In this document: positions 1 through 14,733 of the stretch, piece after piece | How positions within the stretch are numbered: the stretch's first letter is position 1 | Layout: the number at the start of each line of letters is the position of its first letter | From: an uncultured Actinomycetes bacterium | GTDB lineage: Bacteria > Actinomycetota > Acidimicrobiia > Acidimicrobiales > RAAP-2 | Direction of reading: 5' to 3' | DNA: 54,135 nt | Assembly: GCA_903870905.1 (NCBI GenBank) | Contig: CAIQEU010000008.1 | Coordinates: forward strand, 1-54,135 | The notes under the pieces: generated by a model | Databases searched by the model: none | What the model saw: the letters and a program-made list of their open reading frames with translations, nothing else | What the model was told of the DNA's origin: nothing | Position numbers and translations under genes: made by a program

Positions 1-189
1 GGGGCGGACGCTCGCATCTGTTCGTTCGAGTGCACGTGGTGCGCCGACTGTGCTGGACACCTCGATGGTGCCTGTCCAAACTGTGGTGGCGAGCTCGTCG
101 CTCGACCCGCACGAGCGCTCGAACTCCTCGAGGCGTTTCCCGCGTCACTGGAACGGACGTCGGCCAAGCACCTCTGCGCGACGACCTGA
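1..189 (+). CDS. DUF1272 domain protein, C-terminal part (5' end outside window)
   Basis: The reading frame is open from the first base and ends at TGA 187-189, giving 62 residues. The visible part starts just before an ARICSFECT segment and has the cysteine pattern C-x3-C-x2-C-x2-C followed by CPNCGGEL, which is the characteristic signature of the small DUF1272 family of putative zinc-binding proteins (usually about 60-90 residues). The N-terminus is cut by the window edge. A tail of about 25 residues without recognisable motifs follows the CPNCGGEL segment. It converges on the glycosidase gene, with only 3 bases between the stop codons. The molecular function of the family is unknown. Family assignment rests on the motif alone. 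Confidence 0.85.
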   Translation, partial: GADARICSFECTWCADCAGHLDGACPNCGGELVARPARALELLEAFPASLERTSAKHLCATT

Positions 190-2686: not shown

Positions 2687-3151
2687 TCAGGGAGCGTCAG
2701 TGCTCCGACATGGGGCACAGATCCCAAGGACGGAGAAGTGGAGCGGATCAATGGTGAAGCCGTACTGCGCCAACATCGTCGTCGAGAGTTCTGAGAACAG
2801 TTCCGTCGGGACCGACAGGGCGACACCGCACCGTTCGCAGACGAGATGCGAGTGGGCGTTCGCTGCGAGGTGGTAGGTCGCAGCACCGTGGCCGAGGTGG
2901 GCGTGCACCAGCACGCCGAGGCGCTCGAGTTCCTCCAAGTTTCGGTACACGGTCGAACGATTGATGGACGGGTACGCATCGTGGATCGCCGCGGCAATCT
3001 CGTCGGCGGTCCGGTGCCCCTGTGCATTCACCATGGCCTCGACGATCGCTCGGCGAGCCGTGGTCACGCGAGCGCCACGGTGACGAAGGTGCTCGAGCAC
3101 GTGTTCTGCCGTTGCTCCGTCGACCGGGATGGCTTCAGGCATTGTGCGCAT
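2687..3151 (-). CDS. Fur-family metalloregulator, probably nickel-responsive (Nur-like)
   Basis: The 154-residue protein has a Fur-type winged helix (recognition region INRSTVYRNLEEL, residues 63-75), a metal-binding region with H100 and H102, and two CxxC pairs (C105/C108 and C145/C148) typical of structural zinc in Fur relatives. It represses metal uptake genes when metal is bound. Divergence from a nickel/cobalt permease and a Nur-like palindrome between them suggest nickel as the signal; Zur or Fur specificity cannot be excluded. The start at 3151 is supported by a leaderless arrangement: TACCCT lies 6 bases upstream, with TTGCAA 17 bases further. Metal identity is inference from context. 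Confidence 0.9.
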   Translation of the reverse strand: MRTMPEAIPVDGATAEHVLEHLRHRGARVTTARRAIVEAMVNAQGHRTADEIAAAIHDAYPSINRSTVYRNLEELERLGVLVHAHLGHGAATYHLAANAHSHLVCERCGVALSVPTELFSELSTTMLAQYGFTIDPLHFSVLGICAPCRSTDAP

Positions 3152-3157
3152 GGCAGC

Positions 3158-3186
3158 AGGGTAGATGCCGAGTCGGCTTATTGCAA
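3158..3186 (-). promoter_or_regulatory. Leaderless promoter of the fur-type gene
   Basis: On the minus strand, -35 TTGCAA (3181-3186) and -10 TACCCT (3158-3163) are separated by 17 bases, and the ATG at 3151 follows the -10 by 6 bases. Transcription would start at or next to the start codon. The -35 lies inside the putative operator, so the regulator should repress itself. Confidence 0.6.
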
Positions 3187-3197
3187 CAGTGTTGCGT
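3181..3197. promoter_or_regulatory. Nur-like operator between fur-type gene and nickel permease
   Basis: TTGCAA-CAGTG-TTGCGT matches the Streptomyces Nur box TTGCAA-N5-TTGCAA at 10 of 12 positions, and contains the inverted repeat GCAAC-AGT-GTTGC. It overlaps the -35 of the fur-type gene and ends one base before TATCCT (3199-3204), a possible -10 of the permease gene. One bound repressor could block both promoters. Confidence 0.6.
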
Positions 3198-3248
3198 CTA
3201 TCCTATCGTCGGAAGTCCCGTTCGACGATGTTGCTGAGGATCACCACC

Positions 3249-4361
3249 ATGGTCATTGCAGTACGGAGACGCCTGGCACCGACAGAGCGATCTGAACTCA
3301 TCGCCATGGCGCTCGTGATCGTCGCGCTGCACGTCATGGGGTGGCTCCTGCTCTCGACGGCACGACACCACCGCGTGACTGCCGGAGCCACATTCGGCCT
3401 CGGCACCGGGGTCTTGGCCTACACCCTCGGGATGCGCCACGCCTTCGACGCCGACCACTTGGCCGCCATTGACAACACCACCCGCAAACTCCTCGACGAC
3501 GGTGGCCGACCGCTCAGCGTTGGGTTCTGGTTCTCCCTCGGCCACTCGAGTGTGGTCTTCGGTCTCGCCGTCGCGCTCAACGCCGGGATCCGATCGCTCA
3601 ACGGGGCAATCAGCAATCCCACCTCGGCGCTGCACACCTGGACCACCGTCGTTGGGACCACGATCTCTGGCGTCTTCCTCTACGCCATTGGCATCATCAA
3701 CCTGTTCGTCCTCTTCGGCATCCTCCACCTCGTCCGCCACCTGCGCACGGGGACCTTCGACCACAGCACCTTGGAAGCCCACCTCTCTCGTCGTGGACTC
3801 TTCAACCGGTTCTTCGGCCGCATCGCTTCGAGCGTCGATCGGCCCTGGAAGATGTACCCGGTGGGGCTGCTCTTTGGCCTCGGATTCGACACCGCGACCG
3901 AAGTCGCTCTCCTCGTCTTGGCCGGAACCGCGGTCATCGGCGGCGTGCCGTTCACCGCGATCGTCGCGCTCCCCATCCTCTTCGCGGCCGGGATGTGCCT
4001 GCTCGACACCATCGACGGGTGCTTCATGAACTTCGCCTACAACTGGGCGTTCTCCAACCCAGCGCGCAAGATCTACTACAACCTCACCATGACCGGCCTC
4101 TCCGTCGTGATCGCCCTCGTCATCGGCACGGTCGAGCTCCTCTCCCTCCTCATCACCAAGGTCGGCCTCACCGGCCAACCGTGGGACACGATTTCCGCCC
4201 TTGACCTCAACCGGGTTGGCTTCGCCATCGTGGGGCTCTTCGTCGTGACGTGGATCATCGCCGTTGCCATCTGGCGCTTTCGGGGGCTCGAGGAGAAGTG
4301 GACTCCGGTTGGAGTCACCGAACCCACCGCGGCCGCCGCACCCGTGGAGTCGACGACGTGA
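3249..4361 (+). CDS. NiCoT-family nickel/cobalt permease
   Basis: The 370-residue integral membrane protein carries the NiCoT signatures: RHAFDADH (residues 63-70, the metal-binding motif of the second membrane helix), FSLGHSSVV (about 95-103), a GLGFDTATE segment and the LLDTIDGCFMNFAYNWA segment. The family takes up Ni2+ and/or Co2+ with high affinity through about eight membrane helices, usually for urease, hydrogenase or cobalamin synthesis. None of those pathways is in this window. ATG 3249 was preferred to earlier starts because GAGGA precedes it by 9 bases. It ends in a GTGA overlap with the exporter gene. Expression is probably metal-repressed through the operator at 3181-3197. Ni versus Co preference is not readable here. 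Confidence 0.95.
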   Translation: MVIAVRRRLAPTERSELIAMALVIVALHVMGWLLLSTARHHRVTAGATFGLGTGVLAYTLGMRHAFDADHLAAIDNTTRKLLDDGGRPLSVGFWFSLGHSSVVFGLAVALNAGIRSLNGAISNPTSALHTWTTVVGTTISGVFLYAIGIINLFVLFGILHLVRHLRTGTFDHSTLEAHLSRRGLFNRFFGRIASSVDRPWKMYPVGLLFGLGFDTATEVALLVLAGTAVIGGVPFTAIVALPILFAAGMCLLDTIDGCFMNFAYNWAFSNPARKIYYNLTMTGLSVVIALVIGTVELLSLLITKVGLTGQPWDTISALDLNRVGFAIVGLFVVTWIIAVAIWRFRGLEEKWTPVGVTEPTAAAAPVESTT

Positions 4362-5831: not shown

Positions 5832-6664
5832 CGTGGTCGCCAATGTCGATGCCTGGACCGTTCACGACGGCGTCGTTGGCAGACGATCTCCAGGACCTCG
5901 GTGTGGAGGAAGGCTCCGTGCTCCTCGTGCACTCGTCGCTCTCGGCCTTGGGCTACGTCGTCGGTGGAGCCCACGCCGTGGTGCTGACACTCCTCCACGT
6001 CCTCGGGCCGAAGGGCACCCTGGTCGTTCCCACCCACTCTGGCGATCTGTCCGAACCGAGCTACTGGCAGAACCCTCCGGCTCCCGAGGAGGCGTGGCCG
6101 ACCATTCGCGAGCACCTGCCAGCCTTCGACCCACACCTCACCCCGACGAGTGGCATGGGCATCATTGCCGACACCGTGCGATCGCACCCACGGGCGCTCC
6201 GGAGCACCCACCCATCGATGTCCTTCGCCGCCGTTGGTCCCGCCGCCGAGACCATCACCGCCAACCACGGTCTGCGCTTCGGCTTCGACGAGAATTCGCC
6301 GCTCGCTCGCCTTGAGGCTCTCGGCGCCGACGTGCTCCTCCTCGGGGTTGACCACGACCGCAACACGTCGCTGCACCTCGCGGAGTATCGAGTCCACGGT
6401 CCCCACCAAGAGATCGAGCAAGGCGCGCCGTTGATCGTGGATGGACGTCGCGAGTGGGTGACCTTCACCACCCTCGACTACGACACCGAGGACTTCTGCA
6501 CCATTGGCGTCGCATTCGACGCCGCAGGTCACCAGCGAACGAGCACCGTCGGGGCCGGCCCGGCCCGGTTGTTCGACCTCGCAACCGCCGTGGCCTTCGC
6601 CACCACGTGGTTCGAGCAGCAACGGCTGACGAACTCCACGGGAATGGGAGAGCATCGGACATGA
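5828..6664 (+). CDS. AAC(3)-family N-acetyltransferase-like protein
   Basis: This 278-residue protein has the aminoglycoside 3-N-acetyltransferase family motifs: VLLVHSSLSALG with GGA (residues 31-48), GTLVVPTHSGDLS (63-75), STHPSMSFAAVG (126-137) and LLLGVDHDRNTSLHLAEYR. The family transfers acetyl from acetyl-CoA to an amino group; chromosomal members often act on unknown substrates and need not confer resistance. GTG 5828 overlaps the PhzF stop as GTGA with GGGAG upstream; ATG 5843 and 5849 are alternatives. It ends in ATGA with the glyoxalase-fold gene, so three genes are translationally coupled. Antibiotic resistance should not be assumed from the fold. Confidence 0.9.
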   Translation: MTWSPMSMPGPFTTASLADDLQDLGVEEGSVLLVHSSLSALGYVVGGAHAVVLTLLHVLGPKGTLVVPTHSGDLSEPSYWQNPPAPEEAWPTIREHLPAFDPHLTPTSGMGIIADTVRSHPRALRSTHPSMSFAAVGPAAETITANHGLRFGFDENSPLARLEALGADVLLLGVDHDRNTSLHLAEYRVHGPHQEIEQGAPLIVDGRREWVTFTTLDYDTEDFCTIGVAFDAAGHQRTSTVGAGPARLFDLATAVAFATTWFEQQRLTNSTGMGEHRT

Positions 6665-7026
6665 CCATCTCGCACGTCCAACTGTTCTCCATCCCCGTCA
6701 GTGATCAGGACCGGGCCGCCGCCTTCTACTGCGACGTCCTCGGTTTCACCGTGCTCGAGGACCAGCAGATGGGACCAGAGATGCGCTGGGTCCACCTCGG
6801 CCTCGACGGTGCGGGGACGTCGATCACCCTCGTCACCTGGTTCGAGACCATGCCAGCAGGATCCCTTCGGGGACTGGCGCTCAGCACCGATGACCTCGAG
6901 GCAATGGTGCAGCGTCTCCACGCAGTAGGGGTCGCCGTGAGCGAACCACAGTCAGCGCCGTGGGGGCGATTCGTCCAGATCGCTGACCCTGATGGCAACG
7001 GCATCATCATCCAGAGCGCGCCCTAG
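6661..7026 (+). CDS. VOC (glyoxalase/bleomycin resistance fold) protein
   Basis: This 121-residue protein is a single vicinal-oxygen-chelate module pair: HVQLFSIPVSDQDRAAAFYC at the start, LGFTVLEDQQ, and the C-terminal IADPDGNGIIIQ typical of the fold. VOC proteins include glyoxalases, dioxygenases and drug-binding proteins, usually as dimers. The metal ligands cannot be assigned with certainty. The start overlaps the AAC(3)-like stop as ATGA, which makes the start secure. A short CTAGG/CCTAG repeat after the stop (7023-7042) is too weak to call a terminator. Confidence 0.9.
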   Translation: MTISHVQLFSIPVSDQDRAAAFYCDVLGFTVLEDQQMGPEMRWVHLGLDGAGTSITLVTWFETMPAGSLRGLALSTDDLEAMVQRLHAVGVAVSEPQSAPWGRFVQIADPDGNGIIIQSAP

Positions 7027-7129: not shown

Positions 7130-8872
7130 CTATGAGTCGGCAAGGACGTAGAAGAGGCCCGGACCTAAGCCGCTTTGACGTCCTGGCTTAACTTTCCCTT
7201 CAGCGATCAGCCTGTTGAAGTCTCCGGTAACAGTGGGTTGACTCATCCCTGTGAGGTCCTTGATCATCGGAGTAGTGACTTGCCCCCGCTGACCTGCAAT
7301 GTCGAGTATGAGCGCCGAACGCCCTGAAACGGAACGTAACGCCGACCATCGTTCGGAAAGACGCGCGCGAACTGTGTGGGAGAGGCGATACATGGTGAAG
7401 TGGTTGTTCCGTTGACCATCGACAGGGACAATTACTGGATCACCATCGATGCGACACGAACTGAGGAATTCGAGTGACTGCGTCGTCTCACCTGGCGGTC
7501 GTTGCACAAGTGGCGCCGCGCGCTCGACGTCAATCCAGCCGCGCTCGATCAATGCAGAAATGATGATCAGGGCATCGACATTTTCACGGACGGTCGCTGG
7601 AGCGATCGCGTTGAGCAGCGTTACCACCTCTTCATTCGGATTTCCTCCGAGAAGACCCACGCGAATCATCGGTCCCGGTAGCTCTGTGATTTCAGGAGCA
7701 GGGCGCCCCAATACAAGCATGTCGCGCATCATTCGATCGATCCCAATGCCTTCACGCTCGGCGAGGCGCAGCCGTGAGACTGCCTCGGCGAGACTCTTGT
7801 ATCTCGGTGATGAGGGATGGGTGATGATGTTGTTGAGGCTCACCCCGCCCACGAAGCCCCCCGGCGACGTGACCACCAGGGTGTCTCCAAAATGCTCAAT
7901 CAAGGTGGGCTGTTCAGAAAGCCAGTCTCGATGAATCGTTCCGTTGACTATCGCTTCTCGGATGGCGCGTTGGGGGATCGCATTGATCTGGCCGTGGGCG
8001 AATCCGTCGGGAAGATGGATCACTCTGTTGGCTGATTGACACGCCTTTTCAACTTCGGAGATCTGCACAAGTAGCGGCCCGTCACCACGAATGCGCAACA
8101 AGGAATCGCCTCCTGGCACTTCACGCCTTACGTAGTCAAGGCCCATCACCGGCGTCTCGACAAAGAGAAGTGATCCAGCATTTGTGAGTCTGTCTTCTTC
8201 GCCTACCAGATTGAGACGGCGAAGTAAGTCGGCGTCGCTGGCCGACTCGAGCGATCTCGACGCATCGTCACCCGCGTTGAGCAGGTACTTCCGGGCGGTG
8301 AGGAGGGCTTCTGGCTTGGCATCGCCAATGTGGTGTGAGGAGAGTTGAGCGGACCAGTCGACACCGTCCCTACCGATCCTGCCGGCGTGCCAAGTCGTCG
8401 GGTCAACTTCGACGCAGTTGTCGTCGACTCGCCACTTGATCCGACCCTCATAGCGGATTGGCTCAATTGCTTGGTGCGTCGTGAGGACGAGTACGCGCGT
8501 GCCCGATAAATCGCCTTCGTCGATCCTCGCGGTCAGCGCCCGCTCGGTCAACTCCCAGATGCGGTGCCGAAGCCACTCGCGATCCAGATTGGTGCCGATG
8601 TGAGTTCCATCGTCGGCTACCCCGAGGATGATTGCCCCTCCTCCGGGTGAATTTGCGAAGCATGCCAGTTCGCCAGCGAGATACTTCGCCGCTGCCTCAT
8701 TCTGGCTGCTACCCGGCGAAATGGAGCCCCCGGGCCCACGCCTTCCAGGCTCTTCCTTGATGTCGACCTGTCGTCGTTCGATATCTCTTGGGGCTTCGCC
8801 CCCCGCCAACTTGCCCAGCGTTTCTTGCACCTGTTGATCAACCGGGTCCGGACCGAGAGATGTATAAGTCAC
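7130..8872 (-). CDS. AlbA_2 (Schlafen-like) / RecG-related ATP-binding regulator with C-terminal helix-turn-helix
   Basis: The 580-residue protein has an N-terminal AlbA_2 domain (about residues 30-160) with RQVDIKEE and ACFANSPGGGAIILGVADDG. A GHKL-type ATPase segment follows (about 295-385), with the N-box REAIVNGTIHRD (N310), FGDTLVVTSPGGFVGG and EGIGIDR. The C-terminal winged helix is near residues 540-575 (TTPMIKDLTGMSQPTVTGD). Proteins of this plan are annotated as transcriptional regulators or putative RecG-like helicases, but their true role is mostly unknown; some lie in defence or mobile regions. The GTG start has GAGG 9 bases upstream. Its composition and codon use are less GC-rich than its neighbours, suggesting acquisition. 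An elaborate operator region precedes it. It stands alone, with no obvious partner gene. Confidence 0.85.
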   Translation of the reverse strand: MTYTSLGPDPVDQQVQETLGKLAGGEAPRDIERRQVDIKEEPGRRGPGGSISPGSSQNEAAAKYLAGELACFANSPGGGAIILGVADDGTHIGTNLDREWLRHRIWELTERALTARIDEGDLSGTRVLVLTTHQAIEPIRYEGRIKWRVDDNCVEVDPTTWHAGRIGRDGVDWSAQLSSHHIGDAKPEALLTARKYLLNAGDDASRSLESASDADLLRRLNLVGEEDRLTNAGSLLFVETPVMGLDYVRREVPGGDSLLRIRGDGPLLVQISEVEKACQSANRVIHLPDGFAHGQINAIPQRAIREAIVNGTIHRDWLSEQPTLIEHFGDTLVVTSPGGFVGGVSLNNIITHPSSPRYKSLAEAVSRLRLAEREGIGIDRMMRDMLVLGRPAPEITELPGPMIRVGLLGGNPNEEVVTLLNAIAPATVRENVDALIIISALIERGWIDVERAAPLVQRPPGETTQSLEFLSSCRIDGDPVIVPVDGQRNNHFTMYRLSHTVRARLSERWSALRSVSGRSALILDIAGQRGQVTTPMIKDLTGMSQPTVTGDFNRLIAEGKVKPGRQSGLGPGLFYVLADS

Positions 8873-8891
8873 TTTCGGAAGCCTCTTCGTT

Positions 8892-8918
8892 CTTATACTT
8901 CAGCGATCTAAGTATAAG
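8892..8918. repeat. Operator-like inverted repeat I
   Basis: CTTATACTT (8892-8900) and AAGTATAAG (8910-8918) form a perfect 9-bp inverted repeat with a 9-bp spacer. The right arm contains the -10 hexamer of the divergently read promoter of the AlbA_2 gene. A further half-site, GTATAAGT, lies at 8862-8869 inside the first codons of that gene. Confidence 0.85.
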
Positions 8919-8939
8919 TCTTGCTAGTCGATCTGGCAA
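8911..8939 (-). promoter_or_regulatory. Promoter of the AlbA_2 regulator gene
   Basis: On the minus strand TTGCCA (8934-8939) and TATACT (8911-8916) are 17 bases apart, a near-consensus housekeeping promoter and the strongest in this window. The -10 is part of inverted repeat I. Transcription would start near 8904, giving a leader of about 30 bases with GAGG before the GTG. Confidence 0.75.
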
Positions 8940-8942
8940 GTT

Positions 8943-8969
8943 CTTATACTTATCGCTCTTAAGTATAAG
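8943..8969. repeat. Operator-like inverted repeat II
   Basis: A second perfect copy, CTTATACTT (8943-8951), 9-bp spacer, AAGTATAAG (8961-8969), lies 51 bp from repeat I, close to five helical turns, so both sites face the same side of DNA. It sits just upstream of the -35. The two spacers differ in sequence, so arms and spacing are what is conserved. Confidence 0.85.
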
Positions 8970-9084
8970 TAAGTACGAGATCTCGATCGATTGCTTATGC
9001 TTTCTTCCTGGGCCGGCTGGCTCGAGCCTGAGCGCGGGCCAAGGCATCGAGCTCGGCGCCCTAGACGCACCGGGGCGGCACCGG

Positions 9085-12390: not shown

Positions 12391-14733
12391 ATGCGACTTC
12401 GTTCACAAATCATCGCTTCTGCCCTCGCTTTGGCCACCATCATGGGAGGGATCACCGCTACTGCCCTTCCTTCCGGTGCCGCAGTCGCTGGCCCCAAGGC
12501 GAACGACGAGATCCATTTCTTGACGATCCCGGCCATGAAGGCACATCGGGCCGCGCAAGCCACGATTTCCTCCAATGCAATCGGCCAGACGACTCAGACG
12601 GCTGGATCGGTGATGTCCGCCCACGGCGGCATTGACGGCATCGAGGTCACGACTGGCGCTCCCAAGGTCTACGTCGTCTTCTACGGCTCCCAGTGGGGCA
12701 CCGAGTCCACCGACGGCAACGGCTACGCCAACTTCACCGGCGATCCCTCCGGAATGGCACCTCGCCTCCAAGCCATGCTCGCCGGTCTCGGCACCAACAG
12801 CGAAGGCTGGTCGGGCGTCATGACCCAGTACTGCGACGGTGTGGCGAACGGCACGACCTCGTGCTCCTCGAGCGCAGCGCACGTTGGCTATCCAACCGGT
12901 GGTGCCCTGGCTGGTGTGTGGTACGACAACTCGGTTGCCTCGATCAGCCAGACCACCGGGCACACGTTGGCCGCTGAAGCAGTCGCTGCTGCGGGACACT
13001 TCGGCAACACCACTGCCACCCAGAACCGATCGGCCCAGTACGTCATCGTCTCGCCGACCGGCACGCACCCTGACGGCTTCAACACGAGCTCGACGAACTG
13101 GTGCGCTTGGCACGACTTCAACGGTGACACCACCCTCGTTGGCGGTGCTGCGTCGTCGTCCTACGGCGACATCGCCTTCACCAACTTGCCTTACCTCCCC
13201 GACATGGGTGCCAGCTGTGGCGCCAACTACGTGAACGCTGGTACTGCTGGTGCGCTCGATGGTGTCAGCATCGTTGAGGGTCACGAGTACGCAGAGACCA
13301 TCACCGACCAGAACCCCTCCGGTGGTTGGTACGACAACACCTCGGGTGGCGAGAACGGCGACCTGTGCGCCTGGAAGGGCACCGGCGGAACTGGCGGGGC
13401 CCAGAACGTGACCATGGCGACGGGTTCGTTCCCGATGCAGGCCACGTGGTCGAACTCCAACGCAGCCTGTGCGATCAGCGATCCGATCGTCACTGGCGGA
13501 ACCGGTGCCAACGACTTCTCCATTGGCGCTTCCCCAACCTCGGGCTCAGTGGCGCAGGGTGCCACCGCCACGGCAACCATCTCAACGTCGACGACCTCTG
13601 GCAGCAGCCAGAGCGTGGCGTTCACCGCCTCGGGTCTTCCAACTGGAGCAACGGCAACTTTCTCGCCTGCCTCGGTGACGAGCGGTTCGTCGTCAACCCT
13701 GTCCATTGCCACCACGGCCTCCACCCCGACGGGCACCTACCCGGTCACGGTGACCGGAACGGCAACCTCGGGAACCCACACGGTGACTTACACCTTGACG
13801 GTGACGGCACCGGTTGCCAATGACTTCTCCATCACGCCGTCGGCGACGTCGACGTCGATCACGACGGGCAAGTCCGGCACCATCACGATCGCCACCAAGA
13901 CCACCTCGGGCGTTGCCCAAGCAGTTGCGCTGACGGTGACAGGAGCTCCGGCGGGCACCACGGCAACCCTGTCGCCGACCTCGGTGAACTCGGGAACCAA
14001 CTCCACGCTGACGATCGCCGTCGGCGCAGCCACGGCAGCGGGGACCTCCACCCTGACGGTGACGGGCACGGCAACCTCGGGAAGCCACAGCGCCACCATC
14101 ACGCTGACGGTGACTGCTGCTCCAAAGAACGACTTCTCCATCACCTTGAGCCCGACGTCGGCGTCGGTTGGCCAGGGAAGCTCGGCGAGTTCGACCGTGT
14201 CGACGGCAACGACCTCTGGCACGTCCCAGACCGTGGCCCTCAGCGTCAGCGGCGCACCTGCTGGTGTGACCGCGACCTTCGGATCCAACTCGGTCACCTC
14301 TGGTCGCTCGACGACCCTCAGCATTAAGACCACCGCGACCACCGCTCCGGGTACCTACCCATTGACGGTGACGGGCACGACAACCTCAGGCACCCACACC
14401 GCCACCTACACCTTGACGGTGACGGCAGTTGTCCCGAGCACGTTCTCGATCAGCCTCAGCCCAACCAGCGGCACGGTTGCTCCAGGTGGTTCCACCACCT
14501 CGACACTGACCACCACGACCACGTCGGGCAACGCCCAGACGGTGAGTTTCTCGTCGAACGGTGCGCCTCCTGGCGTGACGGTGAGCTTCTCCTCATCGTC
14601 GGTCACCAGTGGTGGCTCAGTGACCGTGACCTTCTCGACCGGTCGTCGTGTCCAGGTCGGCACCTACACCATCACCATCTCGGCGAAGGCCACCTCAGGG
14701 ACGCAGACCACCACCTACACCCTGACCACCTGA
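12391..14733 (+). CDS. Large secreted protein: putative peptidase-like domain plus four Ig-like repeats
   Basis: The 780-residue protein starts with a signal peptide (about residues 1-33). Residues 80-365 form a globular domain with six cysteines (C148, C158, C238, C276, C326, C360) and an [11 protein letters not shown] segment (H298, E299, E302) followed by GGWYDN and ENGDLCAW. A similar HE..E..TD...WYD...GD.C pattern is known from plant EXORDIUM-like and several bacterial secreted proteins, and could bind metal; protease activity is unproven. Residues 374-780 are four Ser/Thr-rich beta-sandwich-like repeats. No membrane anchor or sorting signal follows, so it is released or loosely attached. 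It has its own terminator. Function unknown; the name is structural. Confidence 0.85.
13510..14730 (+). repeat. Four tandem Ig-like repeats, 103-residue period
   Basis: Repeat units begin at 13510, 13819, 14128 and 14437; the first three are each exactly 309 bp and the last is 98 codons. Each starts with (N/S)-(D/T)-FSI and contains an SGSP/SG-type turn, a G-(A/L)-P-x-G core and ends in YTLTVTA or similar. DNA is strongly conserved at motif positions but not identical, so this is old duplication rather than recent expansion. Confidence 0.9.

What the first reader, a model, noticed from the sequence alone, without database searches (positions are those of the whole stretch)
8861..8969. AlbA_2/GHKL-ATPase regulator with two phased palindromes and a near-consensus promoter
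Two perfect 9-bp inverted repeats (CTTATACTT-N9-AAGTATAAG) are spaced 51 bp apart, about five helical turns. One contains the -10 of the gene and one lies behind its -35. A fifth half-site is inside its first codons. The gene encodes an AlbA_2 domain, a GHKL ATPase and a winged helix, and is less GC-rich than its neighbours. This looks like a self-contained, tightly autoregulated switch, perhaps an acquired defence or stress element, whose output is unknown.
Basis: partly seen in the sequence, partly recalled or inferred. Interest (0 to 1): 0.6.

Follow-up and report, generated by a model that had tools for sequence, protein, structure and literature searches.

The report
Schlafen gene with private operator ladder
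A bacterial relative of the antiviral Schlafen enzymes probably switches off its own gene by binding a regularly spaced row of DNA sites that occurs nowhere else in its genome; relatives keep the spacing while the letters change, which points to a one-protein, self-silenced defence or growth-arrest gene.

Summary
Two perfect CTTATACTT-N9-AAGTATAAG palindromes (8892-8918, 8943-8969) lie 51 bp apart over a good promoter; shuffles give none, and no other copy lies in the 2.1-Mb genome at up to 3 mismatches. With the half-site in the first codons and a weaker one at 8993-9002 they form six alternating half-sites in steps of 50-51 bp. The gene (7130-8872, minus) encodes a Schlafen/SAMD9-type RNase fold, a histidine-kinase-like ATPase domain and two winged helices.

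Relatives keep the layout, not the letters: in 14 of 21 sequences a palindrome lies 42-51 bp before the start, and in 14 of 21 the upstream repeats step by 51-52 bp, with four half-site types. The exact TTATACTT palindrome occurs in 3 of 298 genomes of the order, always directly before this gene. Across phyla, relatives with intergenic upstream DNA are enriched in half-site arrays; those with coding DNA upstream, often in restriction or BREX operons, are not.

Best reading: a self-repressed Schlafen-type growth-arrest or anti-phage effector with a private operator. Self-binding, RNase activity and defence are inferred, not shown. Three genomes carry such an array before other genes, an unexplained exception.

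The parts
7130..8872 (-). Stand-alone gene, 580 aa, GTG start: Schlafen (AlbA_2) domain, GHKL ATPase domain, two winged helices
   Evidence: the next gene downstream (6454-7026, +, glyoxalase family) is convergent, so no operon partner downstream is seen
8360..8845 (-). Schlafen/SAMD9-like RNase fold, residues 10-171; acidic positions E32, D37, D87 align with conserved acidic positions of Schlafens
7640..8161 (-). GHKL (histidine-kinase CA/PDK-like) ATPase domain, residues 238-411; E306 and N310 invariant in 24 aligned sequences
7418..7627 (-). first winged helix (DUF5635 region), residues 416-485
7142..7330 (-). second, C-terminal winged helix, about residues 515-577
   Evidence: secondary structure of the AlphaFold2 model
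8892..8918 (.). proximal operator palindrome CTTATACTT-N9-AAGTATAAG; carries the -10
8943..8969 (.). distal operator palindrome, same arms, 51 bp upstream
8860..8869 (-). half-site ACTTATACAT inside the first codons, 50 bp from the proximal left arm
8993..9002 (+). weak half-site GCTTATGCTT, 51 bp from the distal right arm
8934..8939 (-). -35 element TTGCCA
8911..8916 (-). -10 element TATACT, inside the proximal palindrome

Best explanation
The locus is a one-gene unit. Its product is a Schlafen-type RNase joined to a GHKL ATPase domain and winged helices. In the resting cell, dimers of the protein sit on the palindromes of the gene's own promoter. Because the palindromes are one 51-bp step (about five turns) apart, neighbouring dimers lie on the same face of the DNA and can bind cooperatively, covering the -10, the -35 and the start of the gene and keeping the toxic protein scarce. 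An infection or stress signal, probably read through the ATPase domain, frees the protein from the operator; the gene is then expressed strongly and the Schlafen domain cleaves RNA (tRNA by analogy), stopping growth. Shown here: the sites, their uniqueness, their conserved layout in relatives, the domain folds, the patchy distribution and the presence of distant relatives next to restriction and BREX genes. Inferred: that the protein itself binds the sites, dimerisation, that binding represses, the trigger, and the RNase activity.
For: Unique site in own genome. In 298 genomes of the order the exact TTATACTT-N9..12-AAGTATAA palindrome occurs in 3 genomes, 4 sites, every one directly upstream of this gene or its orthologue (coordinates). 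In the window gene and 20 nearer homologues: 29 nine-bp palindromes (at least 8 of 9 paired, gap 7-12) in 3,885 bp upstream against 18 in 30,240 bp inside the genes; in 14 of 21 one starts between -42 and -51. Best direct-repeat distance 51 or 52 bp in 14 of these 21, across four half-site types. TTANNNTT (holding a TANNNT -10) between -62 and -34 in 17 of 21, against 0 of 1,050 windows inside the genes and 0 of 101 windows at -300 to -170. Two genomes with two copies carry two different half-site types: L141+L148 and L143+L147. Hotspot in one genus: of 21 yajQ loci, 9 are empty next to htpX (24-65 bp) and lack the array, 7 hold the Schlafen gene beside yajQ, each with its array upstream and the end of htpX before it. 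Across phyla, intergenic relatives are enriched in half-site arrays: 18 of 43 against 28 of 183 intergenic controls at p<=0.05, Mann-Whitney p=2.3e-5; paired by locus 29 of 40 above own controls, p=4e-4. Fold: 3lmm Z 37, SAMD9 tRNase domain 9o0d Z 9.4, SLFN11 Z 9.3, histidine kinases Z about 9; profile match to vertebrate Schlafens, best E 3.4e-9. TrlG, with the same two Pfam domains, is reported to cause growth arrest at 36 C (PMC7554251, passages). Schlafen RNase + minimal histidine kinase + wHTH is named as a backup suicidal effector near BREX (PMC12839542, passages).
Against: No binding, expression or phage data. In three genomes (G558, G605, G700) an array of the TTAGG type, with the 51-bp step, precedes two other ORFs and no Schlafen gene, so something other than the adjacent protein may read it there. 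The count test is positive in only 6 of 25 intergenic members of the nearer family, many of which have one palindrome. Of the 21 nearer sequences, L115 has no palindrome at the set threshold, L114 has one only at -87, and in the five of the TTACATTT type the palindrome found (-59) is not the repeated element. Helical phasing is also seen, more weakly, in control regions that pass the same filter. The link between half-site and winged-helix sequence is weak: partial rho 0.19, p=0.037 for the second winged helix, but 0.20, p=0.04 for the middle region and 0.17, p=0.063 for the GHKL domain too, and -0.10 for the first winged helix. The fold Z-scores of about 9 for Schlafens and kinases are only modestly above the 7-8 that models without clear relatives reach (note), and the Foldseek E-values for Schlafens are 2e-3 or worse. 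In the window's subfamily the second conserved Schlafen glutamate is an aspartate. A good -35 exists only in the window's gene; the other 16 with TTANNNTT have 1-3 of 6 matches.
Confidence: 0.6

Rival explanations
1. The array is read by a separate trans-acting regulator (host-encoded, or from another element), not by the Schlafen protein; the winged helices serve another purpose.
For: In G558, G605 and G700 an array with the same layout stands before two unrelated ORFs with no Schlafen gene there. TrlG of Photorhabdus is reported to lie in an operon with a separate small putative regulator, trlR.
Against: The site has no other copy in the window's genome, the TTAGG array is absent in 9 of 9 empty hotspots, and the half-site changes along with the gene, also between two copies in one genome. 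Upstream of the gene on its strand the ORFs of 25 aa or more short of the glycosylase gene are a 48-aa one and a 116-aa one that overlaps both genes; neither was compared with a family library, so a small regulator is unlikely but not excluded.
Confidence: 0.2
2. It is an ordinary transcription factor or nucleoid-type DNA-binding protein; the Schlafen domain is a dead DNA-binding (AlbA) module and there is no toxic output.
For: The family is commonly labelled AlbA_2 or regulator (label recalled); the second conserved acidic residue is Asp, not Glu, in this subfamily.
Against: E32 and K39 are invariant, D87 at least 90% conserved and position 37 always acidic in the 24 aligned sequences; the best non-bacterial matches to this part are the SAMD9 and Schlafen RNase domains; only one operator region was found, so a regulator would regulate nothing but itself.
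Confidence: 0.15
3. The arrays are not operators but a handle for the protein: an iteron- or centromere-like site whose occupancy is sensed (for example emptied by phage nucleases or DNA-binding proteins) to trigger the effector, promoter repression being secondary.
For: Array layout in 51-bp steps and dense 10-11 bp half-sites in some relatives; winged helices resemble, among others, the centromere binders AspA and TubR by Foldseek (E about 0.05, weak).
Against: The arrays sit on the promoter with a -10-like element inside an arm; of 21 relatives with coding DNA upstream only 1 has a significant array.
Confidence: 0.1

Closest known systems
DIP2311 of Corynebacterium diphtheriae, PDB 3lmm (uncharacterised crystal structure)
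   Same: Same full-length architecture, 29-33% identity, Z 37
   Different: No function or operator for it seen in the searches made; its upstream DNA was not examined
Bacterial Schlafen effectors (Schlafen RNase + minimal histidine kinase + wHTH) linked to BREX, PMC12839542 (passages read); [quoted passage not shown]
   Same: Same three-part build; distant relatives found here directly after brxC, hsdS, hsdM, type IIG and type III genes
   Different: The window gene stands alone and carries its own operator ladder
TrlG of the Temperature Restricting Locus, Photorhabdus laumondii (PMC7554251, passages read)
   Same: PF04326 + PF13749; patchy; reported growth arrest lost by recessive mutations
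   Different: In a three-gene operon with a separate putative regulator trlR; no array described in the passages read
Autoregulated defence or toxin loci with separate repressors, e.g. the AbiEi antitoxin (PMC7319586, abstract start in listing); BrxR and CapW (recalled)
   Same: Repressor bound to inverted repeats at its own promoter keeps a toxic system low
   Different: Here effector and presumed repressor are one protein, and operator units sit in 51-bp steps with lineage-specific letters
SLFN11/13/14 and SAMD9 RNase domains of animals
   Same: Fold of residues 10-171 and the acidic positions
   Different: The matched proteins are not known for a GHKL domain or an operator (recalled); sequence identity 10-17%

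Membership tests
Schlafen (SLFN_AlbA_2) superfamily | Match to PF04326 above the curated cut-off | tested here: met
   42.2 bits against 25.3
Schlafen (SLFN_AlbA_2) superfamily | RNase fold | tested here: met
   9o0d Z 9.4 over 146 aligned, 7fex Z 9.3 over 129; AlphaFold2 model pLDDT 86.8; Z modest, but the sequence profile agrees
Schlafen (SLFN_AlbA_2) superfamily | Three acidic residues of the active site | tested here: inconclusive
   E32, D37, D87 align with the conserved acidic positions, but the second is Asp where vertebrate Schlafens have Glu (that these are the catalytic residues is recalled)
Schlafen (SLFN_AlbA_2) superfamily | tRNA/rRNA cleavage | not testable with these tools
   needs an assay
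Bacterial Schlafen-GHKL-wHTH effectors | Schlafen + histidine-kinase-like ATPase + wHTH in this order | tested here: met
Bacterial Schlafen-GHKL-wHTH effectors | Located in or beside a defence system (common, not universal) | tested here: not met
   Genes examined beside it are glyoxalase-family, HhH-GPD glycosylase, methyltransferase, 3-dmu-9_3-mt and Antibiotic_NAT genes (the rest of the window was not scanned for defence genes); 9 of 11 distant relatives with a gene directly upstream that was examined do have a defence-type gene there
Self-repressing operator unit | Palindromes over own promoter, conserved in place among homologues | tested here: met
   14 of 21
Self-repressing operator unit | Site restricted to own promoter | tested here: met
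   For the window's site; but in three other genomes a TTAGG-type array stands before other ORFs
Self-repressing operator unit | Protein binds the site and represses | not testable with these tools
   needs binding and reporter assays

The most novel reading that the evidence does not exclude
Stand-alone bacterial Schlafens are a class of one-protein toxin-repressors. Each copy silences itself through a private half-site code laid out on a fixed ladder (51-bp steps in the window's family, 10-11 bp phasing in distant ones). The letters drift fast with the gene, so two copies in one cell do not cross-talk, and the operator can outlive the gene and be taken over by another payload, as in the three htpX-yajQ loci. 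Members that move into restriction or BREX operons give up the array just upstream and take the operon's promoter.
Probability: 0.45. Interest if true: 0.75.

Novelty: new variant of a known kind. Interest (0 to 1): 0.6.

Why it matters
Schlafen-like proteins with a GHKL domain and a winged helix are widespread, and the passages read here do not say what the winged helix does. The operator ladders give each protein a predicted binding site that can be tested at once, would explain how a toxic RNase is kept silent without a partner, and offer candidate orthogonal repressor-operator pairs read straight from genomes. The split between stand-alone copies with arrays and operon-embedded copies without them makes a clear prediction about how defence effectors are regulated when they move.

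Tried and rejected
Chance: rejected. A genome-wide regulon of this site: no second site found in the window genome. Empty-site comparison for the window itself: failed, because the neighbouring genes were not together in the loci of the 12 relatives looked at; it worked only in another genus, at the htpX-yajQ locus. Plasmid or phage carriage: 1 of 72,556 plasmid records at E<=1e-20 and 3 of 50,697 phage records at E<=1e-10, the phage ones partial, so no support for a mobile carrier. Viral contigs: 2 loci from 13 matched stretches, not analysed further. First genome-contig scan with the single protein: 50 stretches, none a relative. Half-site against winged-helix covariation: too weak to name the reading head (24 loci, of which at least L030 and L031 have their repeated word in coding sequence). 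Helical phasing as a family-specific mark: not claimed, because filtered controls are phased too. Reading the divergent plus-strand promoter as a second gene's promoter: dropped, since it follows from the palindrome's symmetry; the ORFs it could serve were not examined further. No match to NCBIfam; the PADLOC matches are to the Argonaute-associated models pAgo and Aga, over residues 209-394 and not taken as membership.

Rows dropped before counts: of 80 loci, 7 had no usable start or upstream DNA; of the 73 left, 43 were classed intergenic, 21 coding upstream and 9 in between and left out. In the nearer set L005, L006 and L018 were dropped by the script, L125 was excluded as a fragment, L016 as the same gene as L091, and L007, L009, L010 were never entered. 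The window's own upstream region was classed as coding by the crude gene caller. The TTANNNTT count missed L108 and L109, whose site starts just outside the preset range. Two pairs of intergenic targets are similar to each other upstream, and the families as a whole are related, so counts across loci are not fully independent.

Literature: searches showed, in the rows listed, no paper whose title or abstract start describes an operator of this family. Only passages of PMC7554251, PMC12839542 and PMC12851939 (reference-list passages only) were read; the rest are search listings. The bacterial Schlafen preprint is not held and was not read.
Full report
What was claimed and what is there. The two palindromes exist as described: CTTATACTT-N9-AAGTATAAG at 8892-8918 and 8943-8969, 51 bp apart. 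The pattern with up to three mismatches gives only these two places in the window against none in 100 shuffles, and none elsewhere in the 2.1-Mb genome. The minus-strand promoter TTGCCA-17-TATACT places its -10 in the proximal palindrome. The half-site in the first codons is real, and a sixth, weaker one lies at 8993-9002. All six alternate in direction and keep one step: 51 and 50 bp in one orientation, 51 and 51 bp in the other. The ladder covers about 140 bp, from behind the -35 to inside the gene.

The protein. Pfam finds SLFN_AlbA_2, HATPase_c_4 and DUF5635. The closest solved structure is 3lmm, an uncharacterised full-length homologue (phmmer 1.6e-75). A profile of ten homologues also reaches vertebrate Schlafens (best E 3.4e-9). 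An AlphaFold2 model from 24 aligned sequences (pLDDT 86.8, pTM 0.67) matches 3lmm at Z 37; residues 10-171 match the SAMD9 tRNase domain (Z 9.4) and SLFN11 (Z 9.3), and residues 238-411 match histidine-kinase CA domains and PDK (Z about 9). These Z values of about 9 are only modestly above the background of 7-8 stated with the tool; the sequence profile carries the Schlafen assignment. E32 and K39 are invariant, D87 nearly so, and position 37 is always acidic in the 24 sequences. The whole-chain rmsd to 3lmm is large (about 18 A), so domain placement in the model is not reliable.

Distribution. The gene is absent from 4 of 4 same-genus genomes and from 32 of 32 other genomes of its family in the first sample; in larger samples two other genomes of the family have a 31-34% relative. 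At E<=1e-30 24 of 298 genomes of the order have it, the window's own included. It is less GC-rich than the DNA before it (58% against 64%). Neighbouring genes were not together in the relatives looked at, so the insertion point in the window's lineage could not be defined.

The operator in nearer relatives. Of the eight relatives at 50-56% identity from the order search (L107-L114), five carry one palindrome of the type (G/C)TTATACTT...AAGTATAA directly before the start (L107-L110, L113). The outer base pair is C-G in some and G-C in others, but L107, L110 and L113 each have at least one imperfect pair. In an order-wide scan of 298 genomes the exact palindrome with 9-12 bp spacer was found in three genomes, four sites, each directly upstream of the gene. 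Seven relatives at 35-36% identity use TTAGG(A/G)TTT arms, a five-member group at 51-52% uses direct repeats with TTACATTT, and one relative at 34-35% uses CTTAACTTT. In 14 of the 21 sequences compared (window plus 20) the best direct-repeat distance is 51 or 52 bp. Many of the 21 share recent ancestry: they fall into about four half-site groups, so the 14 are not independent, but four groups with different letters share one step. Palindromes are about 12 times denser upstream than in the genes (29 in 3,885 bp against 18 in 30,240 bp); in 14 of 21 sequences one starts between -42 and -51. In the five of the TTACATTT group the palindrome found (-59) is a different element, L114 has one only at -87, and L115 none at the threshold. 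TTANNNTT, which holds a TANNNT -10 element, lies between -62 and -34 in 17 of 21 (0 of 1,050 windows inside the genes). Two genomes have two copies of the gene, each with a different half-site (L141/L148 and L143/L147).

The wider family. From 80 named loci, 73 could be used. A count of the most repeated 8-mer (both strands, one mismatch) from -160 to +40, judged against 199 dinucleotide shuffles, was significant at 0.05 in 18 of 43 members with intergenic upstream DNA, 1 of 21 with coding upstream DNA, 28 of 183 intergenic controls from the same loci, and 7 of 137 coding controls (Mann-Whitney p=2.3e-5 for intergenic targets against intergenic controls). Intergenic controls are above the nominal 5%, so the shuffles are not perfectly calibrated; the comparison with controls is what counts. 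Paired within loci, 29 of 40 targets exceed the mean of their own controls (p=4e-4); coding-upstream members do not (8 of 17). In the nearer family, where single palindromes are common, this count test is positive in only 6 of 25 intergenic members. The arrays can be seen by eye: ATCTCAGA-type half-sites every 10-11 bp in an Olsenella (L093), AACGCACG/CGTGCGTT between -35-like and -10-like hexamers in Clostridia (for example L060, L097), TTTAACTCG elsewhere. The half-site is 9 or more times denser there than in the rest of the locus in each of 28 loci with p<=0.05, though each word was chosen in that region, so this ratio is inflated. Same-direction half-sites are helically phased (mean cosine 0.66 over 23 loci against a null of -0.02, sd 0.08), but 35 filtered control regions show 0.33.

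Members with a gene directly upstream. Of 30 such loci the upstream protein was examined in 11. Nine are defence-type: type III restriction, BrxC twice, HsdS three times, HsdM, MmeI-like type IIG, and a NOV_C protein matching HmaA and TmtA models; L036 follows a CoA transferase (not run against PADLOC) and L047's neighbour had no PADLOC match (not run against Pfam). This agrees with the published note that Schlafen RNases with a minimal histidine kinase and wHTH accompany BREX (PMC12839542, passages).

An informative hotspot and an exception. In one genus (22 genomes; 21 with a yajQ hit) the htpX-yajQ gap is 24-65 bp and has no array in 9 genomes. In 7 a Schlafen gene lies beside yajQ, each with its array upstream and the end of htpX before the array. 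In 3 (G558, G605, G700) the gap holds an array of the same layout, two palindromes 51 bp apart plus a half-site, followed by two ORFs without a Pfam family above cut-off and no Schlafen gene; one contig ends in an array (G697) and for one (G708) htpX was not seen. So gene and array come and go together in most cases, but an array can also stand before another payload. These three genomes are near-identical at this locus and probably one event. They do carry another Schlafen copy of the TTACATTT type elsewhere. What reads the array there is open, and this is the strongest result against a purely self-acting operator.

Interpretation. The simplest account is a Schlafen-type effector that represses itself through its own winged helices on a ladder of same-face sites. 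Growth arrest as output is supported by TrlG (PMC7554251, passages) and by the fold. The trigger is unknown; the ATPase domain is a natural candidate for the switch (inference). Not shown here: binding, repression, RNase activity, defence.

Novelty. The protein kind is known. In the paper listings seen no paper is shown to describe an operator for this family; the preprint on bacterial Schlafens was not available to me. I therefore rate it a new variant of a known kind.

Noticed in passing
L149:3740-4676, L150, L151 (htpX-yajQ interval): Operator array with 51-bp step in front of an 81-aa ORF and a 186-aa ORF without a Pfam family above cut-off, in the place that holds a Schlafen gene in other genomes of the genus: possible payload swap at a shared operator.
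   Followed up: partly
L153-L173: The htpX-yajQ gap is an insertion hotspot in this genus: empty in 9 of 21 loci, Schlafen gene in 7, other payload in 3, two undetermined.
   Followed up: partly
L093, upstream of the start: Seven ATCTCAGA half-sites spaced 10-11 bp in mixed orientation before an Olsenella Schlafen-like gene; similar dense arrays in L073, L080, L103.
   Followed up: partly
window 2687-4361: A FUR-family regulator gene (2687-3151, -) lies divergent to a NicO-family nickel transporter gene (3165-4361, +), 13 bp apart by the ORF ends listed.
   Followed up: no
window 12391-14733: A 780-aa ORF with a string of similar threonine/serine-rich repeats in its C-terminal part and no Pfam family at E<=1e-5.
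   Followed up: no
window 91-186: tRNA-Gly (TCC) at the window's edge.
   Followed up: no
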